A stretch of DNA of 64,000 nt from Gracilaria domingensis (lineage: Eukaryota > Rhodophyta > Florideophyceae > Gracilariales > Gracilariaceae), in contig VCMS01000025.1 of assembly GCA_022539475.1 (NCBI GenBank), positions 666,111 through 730,110 of the forward strand, in the 5' to 3' direction. The stretch's first letter is position 1. Each line of letters begins with the position of its first letter. This document shows, piece after piece, positions 44,864 to 64,000 of the stretch. A model generated the notes under the pieces. The model did not search any database, had not been told where the DNA came from, and saw only the letters and a program-made list of their open reading frames with translations. A program made the position numbers and the translations under genes.

Positions 44864-45940
44864 TTACACCTCGTTCTCAACGTCTGATCGCCTTTCGAAG
44901 GATAAGCCGTCACCCTCAACATATGCTCTTGTTGGGAAAAGCCACCATATGGGCCGCGATCCGCATACGCTCTTGAAATTCTTGGCGACACCTAAGTCAT
45001 ACTGCATTACGTATGGGGCTCGAAGAGGGTCTGTGACTTCATACATTTCAATGGTGGTCCTTCCCTTGGCGGTGAGATAAAAGTGCATGGACACAAACAC
45101 CCCAAGTGCAAAACTGAAGGCGCTAGTGGTAATGTAGCCTATCATGGCAGTGGTTTTGAGAGGCTCTTGAAGTTGATCCGCGACCGAAAAGTGCCCTGTA
45201 GAAAAGCGTAATGATACAAGTCTTTCCGTGATGATGGCAAGATGGTCCGAGCGAAAGTTTGACGCTGTGGAAGGAGTTAGGGAAATCAAGTCGATAAAGG
45301 TAGGGAAGGCAACGATGGCCACATTGAGACAGCCGAGAAAGGCATAAGTGACAAATGCTATAAAGAACTTGTGATTGTAAAACGAGACGCAGTTGTTGAC
45401 AAAAACACAGTGATGATCCATGCGTAGTATACAACGCCGACAAACGGAGCAGTGGTGTGAACGGTCTGGTTTGTATGCGCTACAAAAGCGACAATATCGA
45501 AGATGCCCCTCATAGGTGCGCTCCTTCATGAGGTGTGCGTACGGAAAAGTGGCCTCGGAGTCATAGTGAAGCAAATTCTGTCGCTCGGTGTCCTCGCTCT
45601 TTCTGGAACGATATCGTTGGAAGGTTGGGGGCGGGGAGGCGCTCCAATGGTCTGGAGGCGAACCCGGGTCGACGAACACCAGCAGCAAGTAGTTGATGAC
45701 AACATTAATGAAGATGAAATGAAAGACGATCAACAAAATGGTGGATGGAATGGGGAAACGGGAATACAAGGGAACAAGTGCGCCTGGAACAGCCGTAATG
45801 TAAGCCATCGTTTCCAAGCCCAATACAAAAATGACGGGGATAAAACCAGCCGCGCGCATCTTCGTACAGGGTGCGAGGCGAAGCTTGGGATACAGGCGGC
45901 GCATAATGGAGACGGAATCGTGGTGTGTTTGAGGCAGCAT
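44864..45940 (-). CDS. DHHC palmitoyltransferase
   Basis: A 358-residue protein S-acyltransferase. Two membrane helices precede the cytosolic zinc-binding domain CRFCSAYKPDRSHHCSVCRR ... RMDHHCVFVNNC; the catalytic DHHC is at about residues 173-176. Two more helices follow (FFIAFVTYAFLGCLNVAIVA; AFSFALGVFVSMHFYL), and the TTxE motif is TTIEMYE, slightly displaced as usual. Substrates cannot be inferred. The first ATG at 45940 is used; one at 45904 is also possible, and the frame continues upstream to a GTG. Membership in the family is certain. Confidence 0.92.
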   Translation of the reverse strand: MLPQTHHDSVSIMRRLYPKLRLAPCTKMRAAGFIPVIFVLGLETMAYITAVPGALVPLYSRFPIPSTILLIVFHFIFINVVINYLLLVFVDPGSPPDHWSASPPPTFQRYRSRKSEDTERQNLLHYDSEATFPYAHLMKERTYEGHLRYCRFCSAYKPDRSHHCSVCRRCILRMDHHCVFVNNCVSFYNHKFFIAFVTYAFLGCLNVAIVAFPTFIDLISLTPSTASNFRSDHLAIITERLVSLRFSTGHFSVADQLQEPLKTTAMIGYITTSAFSFALGVFVSMHFYLTAKGRTTIEMYEVTDPLRAPYVMQYDLGVAKNFKSVCGSRPIWWLFPTRAYVEGDGLSFERRSDVENEV

Positions 45941-46544
45941 GGCTGCGAAGGTGCGCAATGCAATGCAGCGCGTGACGAGACGACGTTCTAGTAATGACAG
46001 AAGTAGCCCGGGCGGGAGGACAAGCACGGAGGCAAGGTTCTCGTCATCTGCAGCGTGCAGGATTCGGGCGCGGCGAGCGAAGTGGAACGAATGAATGAAT
46101 GACGAAGAGCCAAGCTGGGCTGCAAGGCCAACTCAGACGCTTGTCCGCGCTCATGTCTCCTTCGCTCGTTGTGCCACAACACCTCACCGGGTTCATGCAG
46201 CGCGGATGCCTGGAGGCCAGCAGTGTTACATTCTGGCCAAATAACAATTGCATCAGCTCACCACGAATTGCAGGCCCTCAGGTGACATCATGTCACCTGA
46301 GGGCCTGCATTAAATCCAGTTGAAGCCTTCGTTTTTGCTCTTCTGTTGCCTCCCCCATCGCCCTCATCTGGCAGTTTTCACCATCTCCCATCGCAGGCTG
46401 CCTTCTCCTCAAGGTTTCTACTGATACTTTCCCTGCGTCCGGTATTCCACCCAACTCATCCGTTGGCTTGTCCCATTTCCACAGCCTCTTTCAAGTTGCA
46501 CAACCTGATACGGTCCAGAGTATTTTCCGGCACATGCAACTAGA
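45941..46544. other. DHHC promoter and left flank of the transposon-like element
   Basis: About 600 bases. It contains the 41-bp palindrome at 46269 and then CT-rich DNA up to the ATG at 46545. No inverted terminal repeat matching the right flank (52701-53000) could be seen by eye, so the element edges are not fixed. Confidence 0.4.
46269..46309. repeat. 41-bp perfect palindrome
   Basis: Two 20-base arms, TGCAGGCCCTCAGGTGACAT and its exact reverse complement, flank a single C at 46289. It lies about 235 bases before the first ATG of the transposon-like element. It could be an element terminus, a transcription signal or a hairpin in the 5' leader. Confidence 0.95.
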
Positions 46545-48899
46545 ATGAAGGAAGTAACGTCCGACCCTATAATCAGACCTAATTTGTTATTAACCCCAAA
46601 AAATGATCCGTGTTATGCATGTGGACAGAACTCAAAAAAACGTCCTACAGTACTGGTCCACCTAACCACTGCTCAACTGAAGACACGAGCGAATGTGGAT
46701 ACATCACCTCTTCTGAACCCATTTGCATCCGGGTGTCCTGAACAGGTGAAGCTCTGCACTGATTGCAGGTGTTCTACAAAAAGATGGTGAGTGATTTGCA
46801 ATCCTCGTAAATACGGGGCCAAATCCCAGGCAGCATTGGTATCCTGGAAAACAAGATATACACCTGCAAGCGTTCGGAAGTCAAGCGCGAGTTAAACTTG
46901 CGCAAGGCTCGCAAAATGTGCGAGAGAAGATTTTATACCTTCGTATATTCCCGGGAAAAGCCTTCGATCTAATCTTTCTCTTCTTGAACTTTTGTTATAT
47001 GATGAACATGCACGCGCCCATTTTTGTTCAGAACTGAGCCAAAGGTCTAAATTATCTGAGCAAAATGCCCGTAATCTCCTCAAAGAATTGGCAGAATCTC
47101 GATTTTGCTCATTACACCATAACCACACTCGACATTCAAAAGATTCGGCGGCCCGCATTGAGCCAAGTCGCAGGGGAGTCAAGCGTGGGTACTGCGTCTT
47201 TAGAGGTCATGGATGCCCCGATACAAGCCTGATTTTTAGACCTATCTTGCGACCGTCATTGGATTTCTTGCAAGAATTGGAAGAGTTTGGTGAGCTTGAG
47301 GAGGCGATTGAGAGCCATTCGGGCTTTGGCCTCATAGCTGCAGAAACCATGGGAAAGCAAGCTTGTGGGTTTTGTATGTATATTATTTCCAAAGAAAGAA
47401 CCGGGACGGTTCCCACTGTGGACACTGCATCGCTACGCTGTGCTACCAACCGATGTCTCGTTGACTGCATCCTCTATGCTCTGGATAACAATGTGGACAA
47501 AAGCCCTCAGTCGACTTACATGCGCGGAAATGAAGCTGTTTTTGATAAGGCAAGGTCTCTAAGAGATGCAGTTGTTACGCCATTTTCAGGAGCACCCAAT
47601 GCTCGTTTCTTGCCTGTAAGAAAAGTTCGAATGCTGAGAAGATTCTTGCAGGCTATGTCCATCAGTGGGACGAAGCATATATGCGACAGAACTGTAGAGT
47701 CAAGAATAGGGCCAGTATCGGCTGCAGCAAGACGTGTTCATTTATATGCCCTATCGAGAAAGTGTCGCTGTTACGCCCTGCAAGACTCTCTTTCGGATAC
47801 ATTGAACAACTTCATGAGCATTTGCGGAGACATTGAGTATTACCTCTCACCTAGAGACAGAAGGAAGATGCTGACGGATGTGTGCCAAAGATTCTTTAAG
47901 CAGGCCGAAAATTACAGGCATGGAAGATGGAGGCTTTGGGATGAAATTACCGCAATTTCCGCCAAGCTGTGGGCAACACTGATGATGGATATGGCATCTA
48001 ACAGCCAACTCGCTTCCTGGAAGGTTGCTTCGGCGGCAGGCAGAGTTCCACTGTCTGATTTGTTTCCCATCTGCAACAAAAACCCTTCATTTCGGCCGGA
48101 GAACAGTGGCGAATCGGCATCAGCTCCATTTCCTGTGGAAACTGGTAATGGTCGCATGCCGCGTGTTGAGTACTTGCTTTGTATTCGTGTTCTCAAAGTT
48201 ATTGAACAAATCGCGCTTTCACGTTCCAAATGTTGCGTGGGCCCGTTAACGGCATCGCTTTCTATAGCCGGGATAATGGAGTGCAGCGCATCGTGGCGAA
48301 GCGTTCTTCACTCTTTGGGCCTGATGACCTCACTAGACAGCAGTATGCTGTTTCGAAAACGTTTAATAATGAAGAGAGAAAGCGCTCAATCTGGAGCATT
48401 CGATAATATCAATGTTAGCGACCGAGTTGTCACGGTACAACTGGACAACTTCGATATTCTTCCGTTACATACTGTCAAGGCTGCCGGAAAAGCCTTGCCC
48501 ATGATCAGCGGTACCGTAACTCAGAGCATTGTGCGAGCAAGAAAACGTGCGAGAATTGAAGAAGGCGACGAGAGGACTTTGGGATCTAATCGTAGTGAAC
48601 AGGAGAACCATGAATGGTTGAACCCCCGCGAGGTCTTCAAAAGTCGTGAGCTTTTTGCGGCTTCATTCAACTCAAATGAAGATGCAAACATACTGGAAGA
48701 CTTTTCTGATATCGCTTTCGGTATTGTATACGAGAATAGAGACAAGCTTTTGGGCATACCTAATGACAGAAAGATGTTTAACAGAGGCAAGACGGTGCTT
48801 CAGTACAAGCATCAGGGAGTCAACTTCAGGTCTCTTTTGTTGTCCTGTTTTCGACAACACGGTGGGGAAAGGTCAGACGATGCGGCCGTGATTGATTAG
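46545..48899 (+). CDS. First protein of the transposon-like element (spliced, zinc-ribbon start)
   Basis: Exon 1 is 46545-46786 and exon 2 is 46907-48899, 744 residues. The 120-base intron has donor ATG/GTGAGT and acceptor TGCGCAAG, and is the only joint I found that keeps phase and skips the in-frame stop in between. Exon 1 encodes CYACGQ and CTDCRC, two Cys pairs of a zinc ribbon. The middle is helical and basic and holds Cys/His-rich stretches (FCSLHHNHTRH; CGFCMYI). Near residue 590, TVQLDNFDILPLHTVKAAGK resembles the DN(F/L)D block of metazoan transposon proteins. The end of the protein is unremarkable. The second gene begins 27 bases later in the same phase. Confidence 0.6.
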
Positions 48900-48926
48900 G
48901 ACGTTTTATTTGTTGACGTTAGTAGA

Positions 48927-51900
48927 ATGAGCGCCGCGGACATCCTCACCATCCATGAAAAACTGGGTCTTTTGAAGCAGCTCCTTACACCTGGAGAACC
49001 TGGATGTCCACGCCATATCGTTGTTGCGGGTGACCAACCAACATATAGGATGCTGGTTAAGATATGGAGGACTTCTTATCTGGAGACAAAGAGGGACATG
49101 CTTGGCTCTGGGAATATGGTCGGGTTAAGAACATATGAATGGTTAATACCATTTCCTGGTTTCTTTCACATAGAGAAACAAAGTCTCTATCCGCTTTGTA
49201 AGGAAATCTTTCATGGTTTGGGACTTCAAGAACTGGCTAAATGCTGCGGCTTATCAAATTCACAAGTACAGAACATCTTGCATCATGGTCATGCCCGGAA
49301 TAATCGCGCGTTAGTCTTCAGCATTTGTGCTGCTCTACTAATTCACACAACCGATATCGTTCTGGCTGAGAACCCTGACGTGAAGGATGACATTGAGAAC
49401 ATCATGAGAGAAGGAAAAGAGCATGATTCTGTTGAGACCTCGAAGATGACGTCAGAGCTTAGGACTTGTACAACGGAGAGCGTCACATCCGTTACTATTT
49501 CAATTGGGAGAATTCTACGCAAGAAAGTGTCCTCCTTCTTTTCCAGCTCGGGTCCTAACGGTAGACATATCGTCACGACAGGACTCTTCACGTGCCTCTT
49601 ACCTGTTGTAGGTTTCCATGTATTGTCCAGAACTGGGCACTCCAATGTGTTGGACAGTTTCTGGCTGCGCCTGAACAATATCTTGCATGCTTCCGGTCAT
49701 ATACACTACCAGCAACTTTACATGTTTTATGGTCTCTTAAAGGGAATGATGCCCAGGATTGTCTTTCGAGATCTGTACACCGATAAACCCGGCAGGATGC
49801 TGGCGCGAGTACCTTCATACACTGCGGGTAATGGGAGTATCTATGATTCTAGAGGATGGACTTATGTTCATCTTGACGAGGCTCTTGAGATGATGTTTGT
49901 AAGGATGTTGAAGTCCTTTAACGTCACATTGCTACCGTACCTCGAAAGTGCGGGGGCCTGGCTTCTGCCTGTCTCAATGGCTCGAATGCAGATTCGAACA
50001 ATCTGTGCCGCATCAAGGGTGTATAAGCGAGTGAGAGAGAACGGAGACGCTGATGAGCATATCACACCACTTGACAATTACGACAGAGCTGCTGCTCAGA
50101 CATCAACAGTTCGAGAAATAGTGAACCTGATGCGACGCAAAAGCTTTTTATCAAGTGAGCACCGCAGCTGCGACAGACTCAAGAATGTGCTAGGAGTTCC
50201 CGAACGCGAGTTGACGGACGACGAAGCCCAGAAATTGGTCCTGAACATCGACCAATACGGTCGAAAAAGTGTCGAGTTGCACGCCTCATCGATGTTCCCA
50301 GACGTTTTCGGCCCTTTATCGGGCGAAGATGTCCGTATTCATCTCAACAAGAAGCGACCGAAGGGTGAGTGGACGACAACACGGCGCATTCCTACGATTG
50401 GCAACACAATATTAGCCCAAAAGCAGGATGGTCCAAGCCCGAAGACCAAGAAGGCAAAGGATTCTAGGGTGGCATTATCGGAACGGCGTCACGCCTTTAC
50501 AAAGTTAATGACCTCGCTGACTTTGGCAGAGCATAAGTCTATAGAATCTGGTGACCCAAATGGGGCGGGACATGCCAGACATAGGTGGAACATTTTGCAC
50601 AGCGCCAGATATATGTTATCACCACTCGCAGATGCATATCTTTCGTTGGGAAATACCGTGAGGCACGCCAACAAAAGTCAGCTAATATCCGCTTTGAATC
50701 TTGAATTCCTCAGACAAGATGGAAATTCGGTTCTGAGTTCCATAAGACGTCCGACATCCAGTAGAAAGAACGTTTACTACTACTACGACTACCAAATGTC
50801 TCAGTATATCTCGATCATGATTGATGTCATGAATCATATTTGGAGCAGAGGTACTGACGGGTCACGAGGAAACAGTATGCACGCTGTTACAGTTCTGAAG
50901 ATGAAACAGTTGTTGCGACCATGGTTCAGTGGGAAACGGGCCGAATGTCTTAAACAACTCCATCTCCATATCGATGACCCATCCAACGTCATCAAACAGG
51001 AGTCTGGAGAGCAAGGTCGTCGCGACTATGCGCGAGATTTGTGCCAGGACTCGAAGTTAAAGGGAGAAGAGGAACTCTACAAATTGGGATCTTTGCTCCC
51101 CATTACTGTTCCATGGGGAACACTATTGAGCTCCAGAATTAGCAGAGATGCTATCAGTTCATTACATTTGTTTTGTGGGGCTGTTGCTGGACTGGAGCTT
51201 GCAGACGAATATAATCGCAACATTGACATATATCTGCACGGTGGTTGTTTCAGTATACGCCCAGCTTGCATTGGAATGATTGCAAGTGAATTGATTCCAG
51301 AGCTTGCAGCAAAAGATGAGACAGTTGAACATCCACGAGGAGGTGAGGTGTTGCTGATGCCGAAGGCTCTAGTGCAGAATGTTGAGGCCAAGCTTGATCA
51401 CCACAAAGATAACGGTACTTCGATCGACCCCCATGCCAACGACCATGCCTATGAGACTACTCTACACTTGAAATCAAAAGAGCAAATGACGAACGTAACC
51501 CATCTAGGACAAGAGGCAGAATTTGAAGATGTACTGCTTCAAGTACCGCGAAATAGGCCACTAGTGTTTTCCTCTGCTCATGGACTGCACATAAATGACA
51601 GTTATCTGACGCATGGAGAGTCTGAGACCAGGTTTGTGGCTGCATTCAACACATTCGTATTGCCTACCATTTATGAATCTGACCTCAAGGAATCGCCGGG
51701 AAAAAGCGGATGTGTTCTGGTCTCGAGAGATACGGATGTGACAATAATTTTAGCGCTCGCTCAATGTATGCGAGACATGAATGTCATACATGTCTTGGGT
51801 GACACAGTCGTTGACTTAGACAATCTAAATGAAACTCTCCGAAGAGAAGGAGTTAGTGCGACAATGTTCGCAAGCTGCTACGTTACGGCAGGATGTGACT

Positions 51901-52700
51901 TCTCTGCTGGAACGTACGGTGTAACACATGTGCACTACTTCAGGGCATGTTTAAGAAATGTGTCATTCTTAAATGGCATCGGAGACGCAGATGATTCCTC
52001 TTCCTTACAATTACTCATTCTCTTCGCTTATCTCGAGAAACATGGCTTCAGGTATCTTACGAACAGCCGAGAAAAGGAAAGGCTTCGAGAAAAGTGGGTA
52101 TCAGAAGGATGCAGCGAGGAAGACGCAATGCGACGTGCAAAGGAAATTTTTGTTAGTGAATGGGATGTGGGTACCCAAGATTGGTGTTTAGATGTCAGAA
52201 GATATGTGGCAGATCTATCAAGGTCTTTGAATGAGCTGATACCACCTTCAGAGCATGTTGATAATCAAACTAAGAGAGTACGACACATAGTGTTCAAGTA
52301 CTGGTACCAAGCTGAGAAGAATGAATTGAGTCCCGACTTGGTTGGAGGTTGTAACGCTGATTCAGGCTTCACAAGTAACGGAGATTTATTACTAGAGCGA
52401 CAAGAAGACGTGAAAGCGATTGAGACGAAAATAAGGGAACTATTGGCTAAGTGCAAATGCAAAGGAACCTGCATTACAAGGCACTGTTCATGTGTCAAAC
52501 GAAACTTGAAGTGCATAGGGTGCGAGTGCCCGCGTTCGAAGTGCCAGAATAAGGTAACTGAAGATCCATTCATCGAGATGGTGGTCGACCGGGGCGGAGA
52601 CAGCTGTGACGAAAATGGTGGTATGGATAATGTGGAGGTTTCTTCGTCTGTGTTTCCGGAACGCTATGTCAAGAGGCTAGAATGCTATTTTGTGGATTGA
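48927..52700 (+). CDS. Second protein of the transposon-like element (GDQ, PIN-like core, CXC tail)
   Basis: A single 1257-residue frame from ATG 48927. Residues 31-41 are IVVAGDQPTYR and 73-85 are LIPFPGFFHIEKQ, followed by the conserved GLGLQELAKCCGLS helix; together these match the GDQ...PGDFH region of DUF6589-like transposon proteins. At about 931-945, LVSRDTDVTIILALAQ and at about 985-1000 AGCDFSAGTYGVTH look like the acidic strands of a PIN/FEN-like nuclease core. The C-terminal 1174-1205 (CKCKGTCITRHCSCVKRNLK ...) is a tesmin/TSO1-type CXC zinc motif, usually DNA-binding. No stop interrupts its length, so selection was recent. If D36 is the second acid of an RNase-H-like site, the first lies in the preceding protein. 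Confidence 0.65.
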   Translation: MSAADILTIHEKLGLLKQLLTPGEPGCPRHIVVAGDQPTYRMLVKIWRTSYLETKRDMLGSGNMVGLRTYEWLIPFPGFFHIEKQSLYPLCKEIFHGLGLQELAKCCGLSNSQVQNILHHGHARNNRALVFSICAALLIHTTDIVLAENPDVKDDIENIMREGKEHDSVETSKMTSELRTCTTESVTSVTISIGRILRKKVSSFFSSSGPNGRHIVTTGLFTCLLPVVGFHVLSRTGHSNVLDSFWLRLNNILHASGHIHYQQLYMFYGLLKGMMPRIVFRDLYTDKPGRMLARVPSYTAGNGSIYDSRGWTYVHLDEALEMMFVRMLKSFNVTLLPYLESAGAWLLPVSMARMQIRTICAASRVYKRVRENGDADEHITPLDNYDRAAAQTSTVREIVNLMRRKSFLSSEHRSCDRLKNVLGVPERELTDDEAQKLVLNIDQYGRKSVELHASSMFPDVFGPLSGEDVRIHLNKKRPKGEWTTTRRIPTIGNTILAQKQDGPSPKTKKAKDSRVALSERRHAFTKLMTSLTLAEHKSIESGDPNGAGHARHRWNILHSARYMLSPLADAYLSLGNTVRHANKSQLISALNLEFLRQDGNSVLSSIRRPTSSRKNVYYYYDYQMSQYISIMIDVMNHIWSRGTDGSRGNSMHAVTVLKMKQLLRPWFSGKRAECLKQLHLHIDDPSNVIKQESGEQGRRDYARDLCQDSKLKGEEELYKLGSLLPITVPWGTLLSSRISRDAISSLHLFCGAVAGLELADEYNRNIDIYLHGGCFSIRPACIGMIASELIPELAAKDETVEHPRGGEVLLMPKALVQNVEAKLDHHKDNGTSIDPHANDHAYETTLHLKSKEQMTNVTHLGQEAEFEDVLLQVPRNRPLVFSSAHGLHINDSYLTHGESETRFVAAFNTFVLPTIYESDLKESPGKSGCVLVSRDTDVTIILALAQCMRDMNVIHVLGDTVVDLDNLNETLRREGVSATMFASCYVTAGCDFSAGTYGVTHVHYFRACLRNVSFLNGIGDADDSSSLQLLILFAYLEKHGFRYLTNSREKERLREKWVSEGCSEEDAMRRAKEIFVSEWDVGTQDWCLDVRRYVADLSRSLNELIPPSEHVDNQTKRVRHIVFKYWYQAEKNELSPDLVGGCNADSGFTSNGDLLLERQEDVKAIETKIRELLAKCKCKGTCITRHCSCVKRNLKCIGCECPRSKCQNKVTEDPFIEMVVDRGGDSCDENGGMDNVEVSSSVFPERYVKRLECYFVD

Positions 52701-53071
52701 ATCGTTAAAAAATGTGCAAAGAATTGAATGTACGGCTATGTGCAAGCCAAAAAAAAAATTTTTTGGATACCATACTTTCATTTATTCAAGCAATACTACA
52801 GAACTTGTAGAATGAGTGAAAGCGGACATAATTGCTAATTCACCTCCATGACATGAAAGTTTTTGTACCTAGTATACTCAGACGGATTAGGTGGTAGCTC
52901 GATCTGGAAGCTACCAACGGCACTTGCATACTTGTCGATTGCAAATAAACACAAATAATGAATGTAAACTAACTCTGGCTAGTACAACATTCATGAAATG
53001 GTAGTTGCGCACATCCAATCCCCCAACGCTTTTCTACCTCCATCAACCCGGCAACTACTGTATCACCTCAA
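52701..53071. other. Right flank of the transposon-like element
   Basis: AT-rich, with an A run followed by a T run at 52750-52765. Possibly the element's 3' end and polyadenylation region. No terminal repeat identified. Confidence 0.4.
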
Positions 53072-53884
53072 TCAAAGTAAAGCACCTTCATCTCCTTCCT
53101 CTACCTCCACATCCGCGAATGATAGCGTACGAAATTCTTTCCCATCATCATTCTCAACCGTTTCCTCCTCATCCTCCACAACATCCTCCCAGCTCCACTT
53201 CTCCTCGTATCCAACAACACTGCTCCCTTTCCACACCGGCTTCGGAACAGTCCTGAACCCAACCCGTGTCCTCTTCTTACTATCCCCTTTTCCTTTCTTG
53301 TTCTCCACCTTCGGCTGAATTTCATCCTCTTCTACCCCCACACTTTTCGGTTGGATCGGCCTCTTCTCGCCAACCTTCCTCTTCAGACCTCTCTTCCTCA
53401 CCAATCCTCCCTCCATCACCTCATCCGCCCCAAAACTATCCGTCGCCGGTACAAAGTCTCTCGCATCCTCGTCCTCGCTTCCGATGCACACTCCTACCCC
53501 AACGCCGTTCACGATCTTCGTCTTCGGCGCCGGAGTTACCGGCGTTCCCTCCACACCCCCTACCCCGCCCTTCTTCCTCCCATTCACCTCCTTCGAGCTC
53601 CCCTCCAGATTCTCAATGCGTTTCATCATCTTCTTCTGCTCCTCTTTCATCCCCCTCAGTTCCCTTACCACGAACCCTGTCACCTTCTTCGTCAGTCGAC
53701 CCACGTTCTCTCCCATGCGCGTCCCCATCGCTCCGGCACACCCCAGCACTGCAGTGGCCCACCAGTCCAGCTCGTCCTTTTCTTCCTCCTCCTCGAACAC
53801 ACTCTTTAACTTCTTGTGCGACCGTACCCCTTCGTCCGACTCCCACGGCCACCTAATGTTCGAACGCGAATCGTCATCGCTCAT
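53072..53884 (-). CDS. Acidic coiled-coil protein, unknown
   Basis: A 270-residue intact frame beginning MSDDDSRSNIRWPWESDEG. A hydrophobic stretch (ELDWWATAVLGCAGAMG, about 38-54) is followed by a charged helix (RELRGMKEEQKKMMKRIENL), a basic nuclear-signal-like region (KRGLKRKVGEKR) and an acidic tail. I recognise no family. It is divergent from the membrane-protein genes at 54.5 kb and probably belongs to the same unclassified cluster. Confidence 0.5.
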   Translation of the reverse strand: MSDDDSRSNIRWPWESDEGVRSHKKLKSVFEEEEEKDELDWWATAVLGCAGAMGTRMGENVGRLTKKVTGFVVRELRGMKEEQKKMMKRIENLEGSSKEVNGRKKGGVGGVEGTPVTPAPKTKIVNGVGVGVCIGSEDEDARDFVPATDSFGADEVMEGGLVRKRGLKRKVGEKRPIQPKSVGVEEDEIQPKVENKKGKGDSKKRTRVGFRTVPKPVWKGSSVVGYEEKWSWEDVVEDEEETVENDDGKEFRTLSFADVEVEEGDEGALL

Positions 53885-54524
53885 GGTCGCGTTGGTAGAA
53901 GATCTGGTAGAAGAGCAAAAGGGATATCGAAAGAAGAGAAATCAGGGAAGCCGAAAAGAACAGAACTCGCTGATCGTTCCTTCGCAAACCGATCACGGTG
54001 TACCAAGGGTAGACGCTTTCGTCCCATGACACTGTAGTACCGCCGCACCCGCTCATATCCGTCCAACCTCTGCATCGCAATTATTTTCATATTTACTAGC
54101 ACAATTCTTCACTTTTGAACACTCTCTATGCTTCTCATTCTCCATGTTCTCCCAACCGTTGCGAGAAGGGCGTCCCGTTTCATACATGGTTCATGCCAGT
54201 AGTATATGAAATGAAATCCTACCACTACCATCATATCATGATTCTTCCGTCCTCTTCATCGCCCTACATTTTACTCTTCATGTACTCCTTCTCTTCATAG
54301 CTTTTCCATCACAGAAGCTAAGTTCGCCACTCGTTTATGAACACCTTCTTCACTTCAAATTTACAAGCCTTAAAGGAAACAAAACATAGATATAGCTCCT
54401 TCGATACACCTCTTTATAGGTAATACCTGCTCGTTTCGTTCTCAATAAATATATCTTCTCCTCGCCCCTTCTTTCTTCATTTCTTCTCCTCTTTCCTACC
54501 TACTCACAGGCAGCAGAGCTCACA
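53885..54524. other. Divergent intergenic region of the unclassified cluster
   Basis: About 640 bases, CT- and AT-rich. A TATA-like CTTTATAGG near 54412 lies about 110 bases before the ATG at 54525. Frames at 53.9-54.3 kb are not supported. Confidence 0.35.
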
Positions 54525-55223
54525 ATGGCCTTCCAAAACACCCACAAGGTATCGCATGTACAGCTTCGCAACCAAACTGCTCTCATACCTATCCATCTCA
54601 ACGCATTTCCCCATAGGACATACATCACCTTTGACGACTGCCTTCAACTGAAGTACAACGTTGACACCGGGGAAGCCACGGTTCGAGGAGTCCAGACCCT
54701 TTTATCCCCCGAACTGCTGGATGAACTCAGTGATGTTTATGACATACTTCACGAAGTTTCAATTCATGACCGAATCCTTGAACATCCTCCTTTCTTCCAC
54801 ACAATTGGGAATCTTTCAGAGCTACCCAACTACATGTCAGAGGCTCGGTCTTATTCACATAATCCCCTGAACATGCTCTCGCTATCCTCTCTCTTGGCAT
54901 TCTCCCTCTTCGTTTCAGTAGCCATAGGAGCTCTCTATGGGATTATAAAGCCTCTCACAACACACGCTCTTCTCTACGATCGTTCCTCCCGCCAAACACA
55001 ACTGGGATTCACCATCCTGTACAGCATGCTCGAAACTATGTTTCACATTATTCTGTTTGAATTGGCATTCTCTCTTCACGCCACAAGGTATGGTAGACTC
55101 GCATATGGTCCAATGACTCCGTCGCACACATCCAGCACCGTTTCGGCACTGAGGAATAAATACCTCGGCATGGGCATCGGTGGGCTTATCGTCCTCAACC
55201 TCTCTATCTTCGTCACCTATTAG
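54525..55223 (+). CDS. Membrane protein of the unclassified cluster
   Basis: A 232-residue protein. The first 110 residues are soluble (MAFQNTHKVSHVQLRNQ; TFDDCLQLKYNVDTGEATVR). Three membrane helices follow: SLSSLLAFSLFVSVAIGALY, the stretch FTILYSMLETMFHIILFELAF, and LGMGIGGLIVLNLSIFV near the end. I recognise no family. The next frame, also membrane-like, starts 24 bases downstream on the same strand. Confidence 0.5.
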   Translation: MAFQNTHKVSHVQLRNQTALIPIHLNAFPHRTYITFDDCLQLKYNVDTGEATVRGVQTLLSPELLDELSDVYDILHEVSIHDRILEHPPFFHTIGNLSELPNYMSEARSYSHNPLNMLSLSSLLAFSLFVSVAIGALYGIIKPLTTHALLYDRSSRQTQLGFTILYSMLETMFHIILFELAFSLHATRYGRLAYGPMTPSHTSSTVSALRNKYLGMGIGGLIVLNLSIFVTY

Positions 55224-55247
55224 CTCCGTCCTCCTCCAATCGATGTC

Positions 55248-55727
55248 ATGGATTCTCTCAAAACTGCATGTATTTCCTTCTTCCCCGGCGGTTTCTTCTT
55301 TGGCTTCTTCACCATTCTCATCAACACATTTGGGATCTATTTCTCTACAAAACATACGTTTAACAACATAGTTCCGCTCTCCAATCGGGTGGTATACCGG
55401 AGAAGAGGGCTAAATCCGTACTGCCGTTGTATTCTAAACTCGTTCCGGAAAGCTTTGTTCCTTCAGGATTTCCTGCTTTCTATCAGAGTTTTTCTGAACA
55501 GAGTGGTCCCAGTTTTCTTCGCACACACACTCTCCGAGTCTTTGGACCCCGAATCCTTTGGTTCGTACAGAGGTATCCCGCCCCTCCTCACAAACACCTT
55601 GTTCATTGTACTACTTGTATGCTCCGGAGTCGTCAAACACGCACCAAGAATCAACGCAAAGCGATACTTGTGCGCCATTGGTGAGCACCCTAGACCCCGG
55701 ACACAACATCTACTGCCTTCTGGCTGA
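55248..55727 (+). CDS. Second small membrane protein of the unclassified cluster
   Basis: A 159-residue frame with a hydrophobic start (CISFFPGGFFFGFFTILINT) and a second helix near residue 115 (PPLLTNTLFIVLLVCSGVV), basic between. No family recognised. It lies directly behind the 232-residue membrane protein, and its ATG context is weak, so it could be a remnant or a continuation of that gene. Confidence 0.35.
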   Translation: MDSLKTACISFFPGGFFFGFFTILINTFGIYFSTKHTFNNIVPLSNRVVYRRRGLNPYCRCILNSFRKALFLQDFLLSIRVFLNRVVPVFFAHTLSESLDPESFGSYRGIPPLLTNTLFIVLLVCSGVVKHAPRINAKRYLCAIGEHPRPRTQHLLPSG

Positions 55728-56004
55728 CGTATTCACCAAGTGTGAGACAAGTAGTATACGAACATAAGTACATAACTGATACATGTTTCAACTAAACAGA
55801 TTCTCTTCTCTACAAACATAGTTCCCACTTGTTCATGACGCTCTCCAGCATTGAAGTGTTTGGTATGGTATCCTATCCTACCCTTCAATCTTGGGTAGAG
55901 TCGTCTCTTCCACAATTCTTAAACTTTCTCTCGATTCACAAGATCATTTACTTCGAACTTATATTCGACACATAGATTACTACAAAGTTTCATCACATAT
56001 TCAC

Positions 56005-59000
56005 TCAGTCCTCTTCGCCATCCTCAAGATCGTTTTCAATCTCCTCCATTTCATAATTCTCATCTTCGTCATCTTCTTCATACTGTTCTTCCCCTTCCTC
56101 TACTATCACCTCATCATTCTTCTCCTCCAAATTCGACGGTTCTGGATTCTTCCTCTTCTCCTTCATACTAACCAGGTCTTCATTCTCCTTGAACTGAGGT
56201 CGAAAGTGTGGGTTAAGGTGTACCGCATCCGGGAGGTTGTATTTCTCAGGTACCATGTACATGTGGTAACGAAACAAGGGAATCTCGGGGAATCTTCCAT
56301 CCTCATTTGAAGCGCCTGCATGGAACACATCACCTCTTCCAATAAATATAGACTTAGGCGGAACAAAAACTTCCTCACAAACATCCCCCGTGCCAAACCT
56401 TCAAATGCCTTGGGAGTAACTGCGTAGTGTGTATGAGACCCTTCACATACCCAAATTGGAAACGACTCACTTCCGGACACCATCATAAAGTACCCCGGGT
56501 TCTTCTTTTCTTCCAGCTTATCCTCATTCGCCAAGGTCGGGAAATCCGTATGTAAGTGCTGCCGCTTGCATCCAACTGCAGTGCATAACACCCTCCCCCC
56601 GTCTTCGGCGCATACATCCTCTCGTTTTCCACCCTAATATCTTGTAAACCCATTAAAGCACATATCTGTCCCAGTCGGGCATCCAGTAAAGCTCTCTTCT
56701 TCACAAGCACATGTCTTTCTACGGCTGCCTCCATGTCATCCACTATGCCTCTTCTCGTAGTCATGTACCTCCCACCATCTGCGTTGATGATCGGTATCCA
56801 TGTGATTCGGTTCTCTGGTATCCTAAGGTCTGGAGCCCTCTCGAAGTCCCTTTGGAAGAAGTCCAGTAATTCTACACCAACATCCCCGTCAATGAGCTTG
56901 CTCAAACTCTCTGTCAGCTTCACCAACTCTCCATCCGATGCAAAGCCGTCCAGAATACAGAAACCTCTGTCTCGAAGCTCGACGTTCTTCTTCACAAAAT
57001 AGACATACGCAAGAGAGTCGTTCTTCAGTGCATCCCCCATAACGTCTTCTCGTCGACCTCCATGCCTCCCATTGCCGCGTTCAGGAGTTTATGGCCATGA
57101 TACGCTGCATGCCAAAAGACTGCATGGTGCACACTTTCAAAGTCCTTGGGCTCCAACAAGTGGCCTCGGTGTTGCTTCTGGAGATGTATCGCATCCATCC
57201 ACGGGTACACAGATTTAATGACATTCTCCACTCCAGTCGGCCACTTGCTTGGTAAGGTCTTCACCAACTTTAGCCACGAATCGTCACCTTCATATGCTAC
57301 TTCTTCAGCCTTCTTCAGACCTGGCGCCAACACCTGCGGTACTGTGTCATCGAACGGGTCAGTGTCCTCTGCCTGTGAGACCACAATTGGTACTCCATCT
57401 GAGTCTGTGTCGCTGCCAATGGATATCTGATGACTTTTCAACAAGTTTCTCACCCCCTTCGCACCAAGACTCCGCAGATGACTGATAACTTCATTGTGAA
57501 CAGATTGAATACCCTCCGTCCTTGACTTCTTCCGTTGATTAGGGTTCACGTCTCTCATTGCATTCCTTCGTCGACGGCTTCGTCTTGAACTCCTCATGCT
57601 TCTTGTCTTCGATGGCATATTCTCTTCACTTTCTACATCAGAGTCCTTAGAGCCCTTGCGCACTGCCGCTTTGGCCTTCCTACTTGCCGAACGTGTGGCC
57701 ATTCTCTGCGTTGTAGACTCGTCTACCGCTTTGGTCTCAGACTGTGTTTCAGTCGGCGTAGTACGAGTGGCAGGTTTCAACATATCCACCCCTAAACTCT
57801 TTGCCAGCTTATCACGAGCAATCCAGATTCTTCTCGAAATCCTTCCTTCCCAGAGCTTCTTATTCGAAGGTACATCAATTCGTGCTGCCTGTGTTGCAAG
57901 GTACTCACGAACGGTGCGCATTTCAAACTTTGTCACTTCCACCTTCATGGCATACGCTTCTTCCAATGTAACTTTCTTCTTCTTCGAAAGCTCCTCTGGC
58001 AAAGATTGAAGCCTCCTGCACAGATAAAGAAGTATTTGCGTACGTCTTCAAAACGACCCGTCAGTTTCGACACTCGCCTCCTGGAAAAGTATGCAACCAG
58101 AGCGTCGAGCGTGAAGTGGGTTGTATGCTCATCCATGGTAAAGAATTCATCACTTGATATACAAGAAATTCCAATCTCATGGTAGTCCCCACAAATCCGC
58201 TCCAAATTTTCCAGCAATCCAGGACTTCTCGCCACCTTCAACCCCATCTCTGCAAATCTTGCCAAATGCTTGATATTGTACTGGCCAATGATACCGCAAA
58301 CACTTAGTGCACCTGCGACAGAGGTCCTCGTCATCTTGCTCAAGTCCTTCTTCTCTTCCTCAACCAGGACCCTTATAAATGACACAATAGAATGCACTTT
58401 GTCAGCAAAACCCATAAGACGAGCTTGCTTCAATCCATCGTTTAGCACATTGCCAAGGCTCAAGATTTCCCTCGTGGTCATCTTCTGTCCATCTTTTCTC
58501 TTCCACAGCGAAACAGAAAGACCTCGACATAGATTCCTAATGTTGGGCATAGATTCACAGAGCTCTTTGAGTGCTACATAACGATGAGCTCCATCAATCA
58601 GCACACATTTCACTTTCAAGCGATTGTTCTGCACTATGTCCTTCTCGGACACATCCTGAGACAGAACAGCAACGCTCATGGTCCCAAGTGCCTGTAAGAA
58701 GCTTTTGCGTCCAATCTCTTCTTTCAGAGCCTCGACAGGATTCCGGAACAACCCTCTCACAGTCATTTCCGGAACTTGAATGAGCTCAATATCGACTTGA
58801 ACAGACACATACTCGTAATGATCTAAGTCAAATACCAAACTCGCTAAACTCGTATCGACATCATCAGGAGGTATCACATCACCTTCATCAAAGAGTTCAT
58901 TGACGTTGCTTCCAAGGCTTTCCTTCACTAGAACCACGTCTTCGTCTTCGTCTTCATCCACGTCAATCACTTCCATTGTCACTCCACTGCGATTTCCAGC

Positions 59001-59777
59001 CTGAGTAATAGCTTCCGCAGTGCTGTTCCTCGATGCTCCAGACTGCACAATCGTAGCAGTTTGTTTACGAAATGCCGATACAGCACTCTCTGGGGTCGTG
59101 GTCATCTTGAATTCTTGCATCTGCTTTCCACCACCGTGAACGTTCGATGGTGTTTTCAGCTTTGGTACTGGCGCTTGTTTCCCGCCTTGGGGTTTTTTTA
59201 GCATTCGACGGGGTTTTCACATGAGCCACTTTCATCTCCATTCGCTTTCGGGCACTGGATGGAGTTTTAGGTTCTACAACTCGCACCGTTTCCCAGCAGG
59301 GATGGCTTCTCAGGGGCGACGAATTTGGAACTCGGAGCACCCTTGTCTCCTTCATCAGCGCTTACGACGTCACCCACCTTAGACATTAAGTTCAGGTCCC
59401 AGGCGTAGAAACCGGGCCTGTTCATGTCCTTCAATGTCTTCGGAACAGAATCTTCATCGGTACACTTAAAGAGATAGGGATAGGGAGTGGTCAAGCTCAT
59501 GAGATATCTTCGCTCGCCATATACCAACTACATCTTCCCCTGGTTTTCCCTGCAGAGCATGTCCATGCATTTCCCTTCTGAACGTTGTCTTCCCTCCACC
59601 AGCGTCCACTTCAACGAGAACAGCTTTCCCAATCGCTGCTTTGTTCCCTCCTGCCCCTCCCAACAACAAGGTCACTTCTTCGCCTGGTGCGGGCTTCGAC
59701 TTCATAGCTGTGGATGCGTTCCCCGTCGCTGCGTTCGGTTCAGCAGTTCTGGTCCCGCTCCGAAGTTGTGGTGCCAT
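56005..59777 (-). pseudogene. Broken large gene: ParB-like domain plus 2-oxoglutarate dioxygenase fold
   Basis: A long minus-strand coding region, now split over several overlapping frames (about six breaks), starting near the ATG at 59777. In order: a basic/Ala-rich start, a short unknown segment, then a ParB/sulfiredoxin-like domain at about 58500-58800 (VKCVLIDGAHRYVALKEL), a Ser/Arg-rich basic linker at about 57500-57800, an unknown segment with KWPTGVENVIKSVYPWMDAI, and last a double-stranded beta-helix with the HxD pair (HTDF) and distal histidine (DVFHAG) of 2-oxoglutarate/Fe(II) dioxygenases, then an acidic tail. I treat it as a fossil since it may belong to a virus-like or mobile element. 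Whether the breaks are decay or assembly error cannot be told here. Confidence 0.6.
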
Positions 59778-60090
59778 GGTTCGTCGAGGCTTTCTCACCT
59801 TTCGAGAGCGTCTCATTTGACCTTTCCTCTTCTATCCTATGTATATGGTGCCAGTGTGTGTGATATACACGAGTCCTGGTGTTCTTCAAATCGTACGTTT
59901 GCTCCCGTGAAGTTGCAACCGCTCGTGTTCGAATCTCCGCCCTTTCTCGCGTGAGCACAATGGACGCAACCACTCACGTTCAAAACGGCTGCAATGCCCA
60001 CGTGAGCAGTGTGGGTACAGTTCCTGATGGTTATAAATGGTTGGATCAATGTCTGATTTCGTCCTGGTTGACCACTGTCCCGCCTTTCAT

Positions 60091-60662
60091 CATCTTTGAA
60101 CATCGCCCGAGCGCCGTGTGGGAACCGCGGTTCCGGCACGGCGCATCTGACGAAACGCCACGTGTATACCGCCGAAAGGACCCCCCCTGATGACCCCCCT
60201 GGAGGACCCCTTGCTGTCGTTTATGTGGGCAGTGACGTCGAATAAACGGGAGAGCGATGGAGACGCGGATGACACTTCGGACACATTGTGTAGCAAGCGT
60301 GGAAGACGGAGGGGAAGGGCTTGAGGAGGAGAGACGATGCGGTGGGAGCGGAGCAGCGCACGGAGGGCGGCGCCCATCGACGGGGCGTCACTTATTCACT
60401 GCCCATATAAACGCCAGCAACACCACCAGGTAGTGGTGGTGTGGGTGAGAACAGGTGTTTTGGTGCGCATTGTGTAGTAGAAGTGGTCTCCAGGGGGTCC
60501 TCAGGGGGGGTCGTTTCGGCGGTATACACGTGGCGTTTCGTCAGATGCGCCGTGCCGGAACCGCGGTTCGCCGAGTTCATAGACGAGATCATAGCTATGA
60601 TCTCGGCTATGAACTCGGCGAACCGCGGTTCCCACACCGCGCTCGGGCGATGTTCAAAGATG
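60091..60662. repeat. Inverted repeat pair (MITE-like)
   Basis: Left arm about 60091-60205 and right arm about 60488-60662 are reverse complements: CATCTTTGAACATCGCCCGA starts the left and its complement ends the right, and GACGAAACGCCACGTGTATA occurs in both. The right arm is longer because it contains the 76-bp palindrome at 60557. The interior (about 280 bases) has no gene. This looks like a non-autonomous element or an element terminus. Confidence 0.85.
60557..60632. repeat. 76-bp near-perfect palindrome inside the right arm
   Basis: The sequence runs from GGAACCGCGGTTCGCCGAG through the centre ATAGCTAT to its complement, with one mismatch (60583/60606). The left arm of the surrounding inverted repeat has only the GGAACCGCGGTTCC core at the same place, so the palindrome was inserted into, or expanded from, that 14-bp palindromic core. 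Confidence 0.92.
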
Positions 60663-60942
60663 TACGAACCCAGTGTTTTCTACGTTGGTTTTACATACTA
60701 GACATATAATGCACTGCACATACTGACGTGCCCCACCGGTTTGATGTGTTTAGATCCCTCTCTCGTCTCTCTATTTCATTACCCGCTCAGTTCTCGGTAA
60801 TCCGTCGCAACCGCGCTCTCCACCATTGTTTCCGACGCTTCCCGACGTTTCCGTCGCTTCCCACCCATTTAAACATCTCCGAAACTTCTACCGTTTCACA
60901 ATACTCGTTTACTTCGCGTCCTTTCTGATTCTCAGTTCTTAC

Positions 60943-62405
60943 ATGGCGTCCACCGGAAATGACGCTCCTCGGACTGTTAAGCAGAGTGTGCTGGCCGATG
61001 AGAACCACGGCACGGTATTCTCTAGCGCATCTTCTAGCGCGTCGTTCGATTCAGCCAGCATGGAAACGCGTTTCTTGAAATGTTGGGGGTTGTTCATTGA
61101 GTTGCGAGATGCGTATGCCGCTTCAAGAAGTGGTACTGGTAATCCGCGTGAAGTTGGGTACACGGAAATTGTGGAATACGCTGTATCAAACCGTGAACAC
61201 CTGGCATGTGCACGAGAGTTCATCACCACTGCGGTCAAGGGTCCTTTCCAAAACTACTCCGCAAAAGAAGTCACGAAGATCTGTCTGGACGTGCGTTTTC
61301 TGAGCAGGGTCTACAAATATACGCGTATCACTGATCTAGACGACGAGAATTCTGATCGGCGCGTGAGAGATTTGTTTACCTGGAGTCTTGAAAAGGATGT
61401 CGACAACGGTAGCTCGTTCATAGAACGGGCTTTCTGGAATGACCTTTTCAAACGACATGGTCCAGGCAGTAAGCAGACGAAGAGAACTACGTTCAGGATT
61501 GGGCCTCCCACTCGTTTTCAGCAGTTACTCTATCTCTCTTTCGTGAAGCATATAACTTCGGAGAGAAATCTCCCAGCGGCGAAGAGAGGAAAGACCGGGA
61601 AGGGAACCCATAGAGCTGTGCAGTTCGTCGACGGCTACATAGCTTCGAATGAGACGCACGGGAGACGGATGGCACATGCAGTGCAAACGATTTGTAAGGG
61701 ATGGGATTTCTTTGCCTCAACCTTAGGCTTTGGTGATGGTGAGCAGATGTTGCTGCCATACCTGCTTGTAGAAAGAAGTCGCTTGGGTTCCATGTCATTG
61801 AATCCCGCTCTGTTGGGTACAGTCCGGAGTCAGCTTTTCATACGTTGGGGGAAGAACTGAAACCCACGTTGGATGTGACCGACACCGTTTCTTGGGTTCA
61901 TACTCTTCCGGATACTATCGACGCCAACTTACGGGAGTTGGCAAAAAAATTCTTGGCAGATGTCAGCAAGATTGTGTTGAATGGCTTCCTATACAAAATG
62001 TCCCCAACGTCAAGATGGAATTTGTTGGAAAGCTTCAGACCTGGCCGCCCCGCACGAGTACCACCCCGTTTCAATGTATTCTCCAAGGAGTACGTGTCTT
62101 CTATTCGTCAAGCGATGTCTGTACATAACCTCCAACCATCTCGACTTATCCCTAGGGCCGCTCCTTCAGAGCAGGATGGAGGAAGTAATACCGTCACGGT
62201 TAAGGTTGAGGACTCGATACAGATTCGCGAGCTCCTCCAGAGAAGCCGCAGGGAAAAAGCTCAGTTTAACTCCGATGTCATCGTTCATTCTCGGATAGCG
62301 GACAATGAAGAAGGTTGTACACTGGTGCCTTCTGTTGGGCGAAAGATAACGTTCCAGATAGCGGGTCTCCCCCCTCATGACTTTGATGACACAGCCGCAC
62401 GTTAA
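60943..62405 (+). pseudogene. Unknown protein of the unclassified cluster, frame broken
   Basis: A coding region from the ATG at 60943 (MASTGNDAPRTVKQSVLADE), with about one break, ending at 62405. The first part is helical and charged (SMETRFLKCWGLFIELRDAY; DLFTWSLEKDVDNGSS); the second contains SPTSRWNLLESFRPGRPARV and an acidic/polar tail. No family recognised. It diverges from the ParB/dioxygenase gene across the inverted repeats, which suggests they were one unit. Treated as a fossil because the cluster may be a virus-like or mobile element. Confidence 0.45.
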
Positions 62406-62521
62406 ATGCATCTAGATATTGCCAAGGACAGCATGGAGAAGCAATTCTCAATGCATTGTGTCGGATATGACGAAACTGGTGGAGGCGCTCATGGGTACTA
62501 TCTTCCCTCGGATACATCTTT

Positions 62522-63283
62522 NNNNNNNNNNNNNNNNNNNNNNNNNNNNNNNNNNNNNNNNNNNNNNNNNNNNNNNNNNNNNNNNNNNNNNNNNNNNNNN
62601 NNNNNNNNNNNNNNNNNNNNNNNNNNNNNNNNNNNNNNNNNNNNNNNNNNNNNNNNNNNNNNNNNNNNNNNNNNNNNNNNNNNNNNNNNNNNNNNNNNNN
62701 NNNNNNNNNNNNNNNNNNNNNNNNNNNNNNNNNNNNNNNNNNNNNNNNNNNNNNNNNNNNNNNNNNNNNNNNNNNNNNNNNNNNNNNNNNNNNNNNNNNN
62801 NNNNNNNNNNNNNNNNNNNNNNNNNNNNNNNNNNNNNNNNNNNNNNNNNNNNNNNNNNNNNNNNNNNNNNNNNNNNNNNNNNNNNNNNNNNNNNNNNNNN
62901 NNNNNNNNNNNNNNNNNNNNNNNNNNNNNNNNNNNNNNNNNNNNNNNNNNNNNNNNNNNNNNNNNNNNNNNNNNNNNNNNNNNNNNNNNNNNNNNNNNNN
63001 NNNNNNNNNNNNNNNNNNNNNNNNNNNNNNNNNNNNNNNNNNNNNNNNNNNNNNNNNNNNNNNNNNNNNNNNNNNNNNNNNNNNNNNNNNNNNNNNNNNN
63101 NNNNNNNNNNNNNNNNNNNNNNNNNNNNNNNNNNNNNNNNNNNNNNNNNNNNNNNNNNNNNNNNNNNNNNNNNNNNNNNNNNNNNNNNNNNNNNNNNNNN
63201 NNNNNNNNNNNNNNNNNNNNNNNNNNNNNNNNNNNNNNNNNNNNNNNNNNNNNNNNNNNNNNNNNNNNNNNNNNNNNNNNNNN
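62522..63283. other. Assembly gap
   Basis: 762 undetermined bases (N). Open frames spanning it have no meaning. Confidence 1.
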
Positions 63284-63363
63284 TCATTCTTAGTGGATTC
63301 GACGCCTATGAACTTCATTTCGTGTCTCGTGCGCCTCCCAACCCCTTGAAGACCTGCGCGTAA
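63284..63363 (+). CDS. Possible 3' end of a gene entering from the gap
   Basis: Directly after the gap a plus-strand frame reads ILSGFDAYELHFVSRAPPNP and ends at a stop at 63361-63363. It is short but protein-like and could be the tail of a gene lying in the gap. No family. Confidence 0.25.
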
Positions 63364-64000
63364 TACTACTCGCCTGTTTGGGCGACCGGAAGTACGCCGT
63401 GCATCGGCGTTGAGGAAATGGAAACCCGTAACGCGAACAGAAGTTAATGGTGAACATCCATAACTTCAACTACGTTTCAGCTCGCTTATCCTGGGCACTA
63501 TTCTACATCATTACCAGTTCCAAATCTTACGCCTGGGTGAGAGTACTCCGATAGAGAGTCGAAGAGTTGGTTAGAAGAATCGAACCGCGAACGCCGTCCA
63601 GAACAAAAGTCGAGGCAAACTATCTGATTGGAGCTGAGAGCGAGGTTTCTCGAATCCCGGGATGTTGTGAGTTGACTCACTCCGGGACGTTCTCGTGCGC
63701 GCTGGCATGTATGGATACTGCAGGGCCTCGCGTTTCATTGGGAGTGACAAGTAGTGAGCAGTTGGTTTCTCATGCCAAGCACAATGACTATTGTGCATTA
63801 CGCAAAAAGGTGTGATGGCGGCAATGAATTGAAGATGAAAGACCGTTACGAATGATGTAGTTTTCAGGGCGTTTATGTGTGTGGATGCCAAATTTCCTGA
63901 ACGAAACAAAGACTTCGACTAGATGGAAGCACCAAGGTTCCCATCGTACCAATCTTCCCAATTCCCATATCATGTCACCTATCCACCTATTGGAATGAAC
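63364..64000. other. Unannotated end of window
   Basis: About 640 bases. Small frames on both strands have no domain features. No repeat or RNA gene recognised. Confidence 0.4.

What the first reader, a model, noticed from the sequence alone, without database searches (positions are those of the whole stretch)
46545..52700. Transposon-like element whose putative catalytic motifs are split between two same-phase genes
Seen: a spliced first gene with two Cys pairs and TVQLDNFDI, then after 27 bases a 1257-residue second gene with VVAGDQPTYR, IPFPGFFHIEK, RDTDVTIIL, AGCDFSAGTYG and a CXC tail. Known from memory: metazoan and fungal transposon-like proteins (DUF6589-like) carry the DNxD and GDQ...PGDFH blocks, and metazoan ones the DTDV and CXC blocks, usually in one chain. 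Inference: an RNase-H-like transposase plus a PIN/FEN-like nuclease divided over two polypeptides, or one expressed by read-through. I know of no described red-algal family with this layout.
Basis: partly seen in the sequence, partly recalled or inferred. Interest (0 to 1): 0.85.

Follow-up and report, generated by a model that had tools for sequence, protein, structure and literature searches.

The report
Broken red-algal jumping gene, misread as split
The window holds a mutated, interrupted copy of a large red-algal DNA transposon; its two apparent genes are one gene broken by mutations, while relatives also carry an unexpected second gene for an enzyme that resembles adenine methyltransferases.

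Summary
Window 46313-52644 is a dead copy of an ~8.1 kb DNA transposon. The TAG between the 'two genes' (48897) is CAG in both sister copies that cover it, and the frame runs on in 7 of 7 more distant loci spanning it. The 'intron' is the same frame with two more private stops. The parent protein is one ~2,075-aa chain: DNF[DN] and GDQPTY blocks, an XPG/FEN-like nuclease segment (0 of 300 shuffles as good) and a CXC-like tail. Two full-length copies have inverted ends (CAGTCSGTGAG, decayed at one end) and 4-bp target duplications (AACT, AATG). AcademX fits best; homology to Academ transposases could not be tested. The last 56 bases of 'gene 2' belong to a 20.4-kb Plavaka transposon inserted at 52645. 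That insert hid the main find: a second, tail-to-tail gene for a PCIF1-like N6-adenine methyltransferase (Pfam E 7e-7 and 6e-7, just under cut-off), in the same order in 13 of 13 loci where both genes match. Probably a new variant of a known kind; the methyltransferase's function is inferred.

The parts
46313..52644 (+). Remnant of the ~8.1 kb DNA transposon: lacks the first 52 bases of the left end and, inside the window, the last ~1.75 kb
   Evidence: blastn against C153, C42, C166; 98.56% identical to C153 over 6328 aligned bases
46545..52644 (+). Transposase/nuclease pseudogene: one continuous frame, only in-frame 3-base differences and no frameshift against its sisters, three private stops; in longer copies it runs 40 residues further (parent protein ~2,075 aa, my arithmetic from C153)
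46788..46790 (+).
46893..46895 (+). Private stop TAA inside the supposed intron; absent from C153 and C42
48897..48899 (+). Private stop TAG that separates the two supposed genes (CAG, Gln, in C153 and C42)
48429..48458 (+). VTVQLDNFDI block, candidate first catalytic Asp of a DDE-type transposase
   Evidence: the first Asp is kept in 6 of 6 loci shown; catalytic role inferred
49020..49046 (+). VVAGDQPTY block, candidate second catalytic Asp
   Evidence: Asp kept in 6 of 7 loci shown, His in C69; lies in the weak DUF6589 match
49152..49178 (+). FPGFFHIEK block
   Evidence: role inferred
49863..49892 (+). YVHLDEALEM block, candidate third catalytic acid
   Evidence: role inferred
51612..51914 (+). 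XPG/FEN-like nuclease segment: HGESETRF, RDTDVTII, TAGCDFSAGT
   Evidence: profile-profile match of the DTDV-to-GCDF part to FEN1/EXO1/XPG-like genes of this genome and two archaeal FEN: score 48.0, best of 300 column shuffles 26.4; HGESET as the FEN ExE is by eye
52452..52529 (+). CXC-like cysteine cluster near the C-terminus
   Evidence: cysteines kept in full in some relatives (C162, C149, C419, C202) and in part in others; Pfam TCR only 9.2 bits against a cut-off of 23.5
52643..52644 (+). TT, left copy of the 2-bp duplication made by the nested insertion
   Evidence: the second TT precedes the resumed element at C25:739209
52645..52700 (+). Tail of the supposed second gene; really the first 56 bases of the nested transposon
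52645..64000 (.). Left part of a ~20.45-kb nested Plavaka transposon (to C25:739206, beyond the window), ends CGTCTGTGTTTCCGG / CCGGAAACACAGACG
   Evidence: Plavaka transposase E 7e-23 in L051
46270..46308 (.). 39-bp palindrome at the place of the missing left end; no other match within 3 mismatches in this genome

Best explanation
The finding is a dead copy of a cut-and-paste DNA transposon of a red alga, most likely an Academ (AcademX-type) element (that assignment alone about 0.6). SHOWN: inverted ends, 4-bp target duplications, several copies, a frame that is one ~2,075-aa chain in relatives, an XPG/FEN-I-like segment, private stops in this copy, a 20.4-kb Plavaka transposon inserted at 52645, and a second gene tail-to-tail with the first that resembles PCIF1 N6-adenine methyltransferases. 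INFERRED: the chain binds the element's ends with its cysteine-rich domains, a DDE-type RNase-H core (DNF[DN], GDQ, DEALE) cuts and joins with a 4-bp stagger, the FEN-like domain trims strands or flaps during excision or joining, and the methyltransferase modifies element DNA (timing, protection or silencing of the element) or the element's mRNA cap.
For: Copies: C25, C42, C153 nearly the full query; C166 part; diverged relatives. Ends and duplications: C153 8132 bp, CAGTCCG...CAGACTG, AACT both sides; C149 7917 bp, CAGTCGGTGAG...CTCACGGACTG, AATG both sides. Single chain. Nuclease. AcademX has 3- or 4-bp duplications and a nuclease: passage in PMC10045372. Methyltransferase: 41% identity over 375 aa between two element families, PCIF1_WW E 7.1e-7 and 5.7e-7, NPPF kept in 7 of 9 loci covering it, arrangement conserved. 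Nested insert.
Against: DUF6589 never reaches its cut-off, and 3 of the 6 proteins did not match it at all. Both structure models were poor (mean pLDDT 39.9 and 42.7) and fold searches found nothing at E <= 0.001. Pfam XPG_I does not ring on the element (3 matches, elsewhere), and my by-eye match of the XPG N-region failed its control. No Academ sequence was at hand, so family membership is inferred. No intact transposase gene was seen among the copies read; dN/dS among the young copies is 0.31-0.91 for the transposase and 0.65-1.39 for the methyltransferase, as expected of decaying copies. PDB sequence searches were not significant, although PCIF1 was the only match (E 0.95) and one of two (E 1.1). 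PCIF1_WW matches are mostly just under the cut-off.
Confidence: 0.82

Rival explanations
1. One reading: a transposon whose RNase-H-like and PIN/FEN-like parts are made as two proteins, or as one by read-through of the TAG, with a spliced first gene.
For: The two ORFs lie in one phase, 27 bases apart, and the second begins with an ATG.
Against: CAG in both sisters, no stop in 7 of 7 further loci, two more private stops in and beside the supposed intron; the stop lies between candidate catalytic blocks of one domain (inference).
Confidence: 0.03
2. The element belongs to a separate, undescribed superfamily (a DUF6589-like, XPG-bearing, CXC-tailed clade) rather than to Academ.
For: Pfam gives nothing above cut-off for the transposase; no Academ sequence could be compared.
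Against: 4-bp duplications and a nuclease are what AcademX shows (passage; the XPG nature of its nuclease is recalled).
Confidence: 0.25
3. The methyltransferase gene is a host PCIF1 gene or a passenger next to the element by chance or by one recent capture.
For: PCIF1 is a cellular enzyme of other eukaryotes; C43 keeps the transposase C-terminus but shows no methyltransferase match, and C624 shows a methyltransferase match without a transposase match.
Against: It lies between the transposase gene and the right end in C153 and C149; the same tail-to-tail order occurs in 13 of 13 loci where both match; the 8 PCIF1_WW matches listed for the genome all lie at these loci.
Confidence: 0.06

Closest known systems
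Academ superfamily, AcademX lineage (Kojima 2020 as cited in PMC10045372; only that passage seen; the 2020 paper was not held)
   Same: 3- or 4-bp target duplications (here 4 bp twice); a nuclease encoded by the element; a DDE-type DNA transposon
   Different: Extra PCIF1-like methyltransferase gene on the opposite strand. Homology of the DDE core to Academ not tested. That the AcademX nuclease is XPG-like is recalled
Pfam PF20231 DUF6589
   Same: Roughly the same 70-90 profile positions around the GDQ block match weakly in the window protein and three relatives; 1 of 24 members of A3 also
   Different: 13.1-17.8 bits against a cut-off of 27; not a member by that test
XPG/FEN1/EXO1 nucleases (this genome's L061, L062, L063; only L061 was checked, as FEN1; the other two names are my reading)
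   Same: DxD and GCD blocks and the region after them align with P about 2e-5 to 3e-5
   Different: Long insertions; N-region not demonstrable; Pfam XPG_I does not ring
PCIF1 cap-adenosine N6-methyltransferase (Pfam PF12237)
   Same: FG..G and NPPF core; E 7.1e-7 and 5.7e-7
   Different: Carried by a transposon; most matches sit just under the cut-off; substrate unknown
Sola1-1_Ec32 of Ectocarpus and giant EnSpm elements of red algae (passages in PMC12477816)
   Same: DNA transposons of algae with accessory genes; the Sola1 one has a methyltransferase gene on the strand opposite the transposase
   Different: There a ParB-like plus bacterial-type N4C/N6A methyltransferase in Sola1; here a PCIF1-like one in an Academ-like element. 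The nested 20-kb Plavaka insert looks like the giant EnSpm kind

Membership tests
Academ (AcademX) | 3- or 4-bp target-site duplication | tested here: met
   AACT at C153; AATG at C149
Academ (AcademX) | Terminal inverted repeats (recalled as a trait of the family) | tested here: met
   CAGTCGGTGAG/CTCACGGACTG at C149; CTCACGGACTG at the window copy's own right end; CAGTCCG/CAGACTG at C153
Academ (AcademX) | Nuclease (XPG-like, recalled) encoded by the element | tested here: met
   hhalign score 48.0, P 2.3e-5, 0 of 300 shuffles reach it; the XPG_I HMM itself did not ring
Academ (AcademX) | Transposase homologous to Academ DDE transposases | not testable with these tools
   I had no Academ sequence or profile; key papers not held
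DUF6589 (PF20231) | Score above Pfam's gathering cut-off of 27 bits | tested here: not met
   Best 17.8 bits, E 0.0014
DDE/RNase-H transposase | RNase-H fold with three acidic residues | tested here: inconclusive
   Candidate acids mostly conserved; model too poor, fold search empty
CXC/TCR (PF03638) | Score above cut-off 23.5 | tested here: not met
   9.2 bits; cysteine spacing kept in part of the relatives
PCIF1 methyltransferase (PF12237), second gene | Score above cut-off 31.1 | tested here: inconclusive
   2 of 8 genome matches reach it (C200 33.6; C166 31.1 with its neighbours), 6 do not; 29.4 and 29.7 as proteins, E 7.1e-7 and 5.7e-7
PCIF1 methyltransferase (PF12237), second gene | NPPF catalytic motif (recalled) | tested here: met
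   7 of 9 loci covering it; NRPF in C202, TPPF in C109
Plavaka (PF18759), nested insert | Plavaka transposase above cut-off 26.3 | tested here: met
   81.8 bits, E 7e-23

The most novel reading that the evidence does not exclude
An old lineage of eukaryotic DNA transposons has made a PCIF1-type N6-adenine methyltransferase a permanent second gene, paired tail-to-tail with a transposase that carries its own FEN-like nuclease. The element would mark its own DNA, or its own transcripts' caps, to tell them from the host's: a self-modification system fused to a mobile element, built from an enzyme known to me only for RNA caps.
Probability: 0.3. Interest if true: 0.75.

Novelty: new variant of a known kind. 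Interest (0 to 1): 0.5.

Why it matters
It corrects a tempting misreading (a split transposase): the decisive evidence lay in sister copies and ~20 kb downstream. The real novelty is the accessory gene. Algal transposons with bacterial-type methyltransferases on the opposite strand are reported (passage in PMC12477816). I saw no report of a PCIF1-like enzyme in a DNA transposon among the papers listed by the two searches that asked for it (20 of 185 listed, 20 of 42; listings only, open-access library). If it methylates DNA, it links mobile elements to 6mA in algae; if it methylates caps, a transposon would be editing its own mRNA's identity. An open frame exists (C166, 379 codons), so the question is directly testable.

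Tried and rejected
Rejected: two-gene, splicing and read-through models; C166 as an allele of the window, because the nested insert but not the left flank is shared in the stretch compared.

Led nowhere: structure prediction of a relative's N-half (L056 ORF, 778 aa, 15 rows, mean pLDDT 39.9) and of the C-half (P0002, 941 aa, 24 rows, 42.7) and Foldseek against PDB; viral-contig scans with A4, A5 and A7 and a genome-contig scan with A4 (no relative); PDB sequence searches of both halves and of the second gene; PF20231 scan of the genome (nothing rang, not even in controls); NCBIfam (0 families for 3 proteins; only 2 sub-cut-off matches for one insert ORF of 5 given); profile test of the XPG N-region (P 0.23, score 12.9 while shuffles reach 22.9). 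The other end of the C166 copy of the 20-kb insert was sought at C166:114800-117000 and not found. One alignment held a useless 20-base fragment by mistake and was not used further. The first hhalign script read a gapped row in place of the protein and was discarded; one search replaces it.
Full report
1. The observation. The ORFs and motifs are present at the stated places and in one phase. A genome search places the window at C25:666111-730110 of a 77.9-Mb assembly and finds near-identical copies on C42, C153 and in part C166, later also C169. One contig (C680) carries 10 of the 12 phycobilisome-protein matches in this genome, which fits a red alga.

2. The split is damage. Aligned with C153 and C42, the window frame from ATG 46545 to 52644 has no frameshift but three stops that the sisters lack: TGA 46788 (TCA in both), TAA 46893 and TAG 48897 (CAG in both). 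The sisters have other, private lesions: C153 stops at 47745 and 52248 and a one-base deletion at 48639; C42 stops at 47085 and 49521. In seven more distant loci that span 48897 (C162, C149, C7, C488, C109, C43, C69; C162 and C149 are near-identical) no stop stands there, and in three that cover the start of the supposed intron (C149, C488, C43) none stands there either. So neither an intron nor two polypeptides is needed; the parent is one chain of about 2,075 residues (my arithmetic).

3. The ends. C153 is full length: 8132 bp, CAGTCCG...CAGACTG, flanked by AACT on both sides. C149, 45-51% identical in protein in the matching stretches, is also full length: 7917 bp, CAGTCGGTGAG...CTCACGGACTG, flanked by AATG. 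The left end of C42 and the right end of C169 are both flanked by ATAT; they may be the two ends of one insertion, which I did not prove. The window copy has lost its first 52 bases, replaced by a 39-bp palindrome with no other match within 3 mismatches in the genome; its own right end, CTCACGGACTG, lies at about C25:740957.

4. A transposon inside the transposon. The match breaks at 52644. At C25:739209 the element resumes (L046). Between lie ~20,452 bases with 15-bp inverted ends CGTCTGTGTTTCCGG and a TT duplication, holding a Plavaka transposase (PF18759, E 7e-23). A copy of its left part, 97.7-98.8% identical as far as compared (to window 61267), sits at another point (49969, opposite orientation) of the C166 element.

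5. What the long protein is. DUF6589 matches weakly at the GDQ block: 13.1 bits (window), 14.7 (P0001), 13.9 (L010 ORF), 17.8 (P0003), cut-off 27; P0002, P0004 and the short L013 ORF did not match it, and 1 of 24 members of A3 did (E 0.0029). The nuclease idea holds better. A first profile comparison with three XPG-like genes of this genome aligned the GCDF region (P 2.4e-4, probability 44%). With two archaeal FEN added and cleaner rows, DTDV and GCDF align with the nuclease DxD and GCD blocks (P 2.9e-5, probability 74%); on FEN1 columns the score is 48.0 while 300 column shuffles reach at most 26.4 and the reversed profile 19.1. The N-region failed the same test, and Pfam XPG_I rang only at three other genes. 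The CXC tail is below cut-off but its cysteines are kept in full in several relatives and in part in others. Candidate transposase acids DNF[DN], GDQ and DEALE are mostly kept; their role is inferred. AcademX makes 3- or 4-bp duplications and carries a nuclease, AcademH 9 or 10 bp and a helicase (passage in PMC10045372). On that ground Academ is the best home, at about 0.6; no Academ sequence could be compared.

6. The second gene. Past the transposase stop, the 3' 1.6 kb of C166 and the matching part of C149 align best on the opposite strand: 41% identity over 375 residues, E 9e-96, 290 bits. Other frames of the same stretch match more weakly, as shadows do: the best is a plus-strand frame, 137 bits. 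The frames are open for 379 (C166) and 358 (C149) codons, and for 422 codons in the window's own copy beyond the insert (C25:739396-740532). Pfam names the product PCIF1_WW at E 7.1e-7 and 5.7e-7, 29.4 and 29.7 bits, just under the cut-off of 31.1; in a genome scan C200 (33.6) and C166 (31.1 with neighbours) pass, 6 others do not, and all 8 listed matches lie at these elements' methyltransferase loci. NPPF stands in 7 of 9 loci covering it, NRPF in C202 and TPPF in C109. Of 10 loci whose transposase match reaches residue 880 or more of the C-half query (C166, C153, C25, C169, C419, C162, C149, C43, C200, C202), 9 have the methyltransferase downstream on the other strand; C43 does not. Adding C109 and three very diverged loci with weak matches (C89, C25 near 300 kb, C536), the order is the same in 13 of 13 loci where both match; C624 has a methyltransferase match only. 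These lists are lower bounds, as the tool says.

7. How it may work. Shown: a mobile element with ends, duplications and two conserved genes. Inferred: cut-and-paste by the DDE core, help from the FEN-like domain, end binding by the cysteine-rich parts, and self-marking by the methyltransferase. dN/dS between young copies is 0.31-0.91 (transposase, 5 pairs) and 0.65-1.39 (methyltransferase, 6 pairs): these copies are decaying.

8. Novelty. [quoted passage not shown] giant EnSpm elements with accessory genes are reported in red algae (passages in PMC12477816). Retrotransposons with cytosine or adenine methyltransferases are known (passages in PMC5890265). A PCIF1-like enzyme in a DNA transposon was not seen in the listings of searches (20 of 185 and 20 of 42 papers listed). 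I judge the element a new variant of a known kind, and the finding as worded an artefact of decay.

Noticed in passing
window 52645-64000, on to C25:739206 (L051, L046): A ~20.45-kb Plavaka (EnSpm/CACTA-like) transposon with 15-bp inverted ends, a TT duplication and several other long ORFs, nested in the window element; the ORF at 57945-59216 (-) looked ParB-like by eye but Pfam and NCBIfam gave nothing.
   Followed up: partly
L011:6906-9901 and L012 (C166): A copy of that insert, about 98% identical as far as compared, sits at a different point of another copy of the same host element; two insertions into one low-copy family may mean nesting preference. Its far end was not found.
   Followed up: partly
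window 46270-46308: 39-bp palindrome, single in this genome within 3 mismatches, exactly where the element's left end is missing; it could be a scar of hairpin repair or of a failed excision.
   Followed up: partly
C42:151558-182845 and L024 (C169): The C42 copy looks cut at 50599-50603 by another insert of about 25 kb; C169 shows the same junction.
   Followed up: no
C25:298090-302918, C536, C537, C89: Very diverged relatives (23-35% identity), three of the four loci with weak methyltransferase matches too: an old, diverse lineage in this genome.
   Followed up: no
window 62522-63283: A run of N inside the nested insert; left alone.
   Followed up: no
window 43300-46027: Left flank holds ordinary host genes: a DAP3-like mitochondrial ribosomal protein and a DHHC palmitoyltransferase.
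   Followed up: yes
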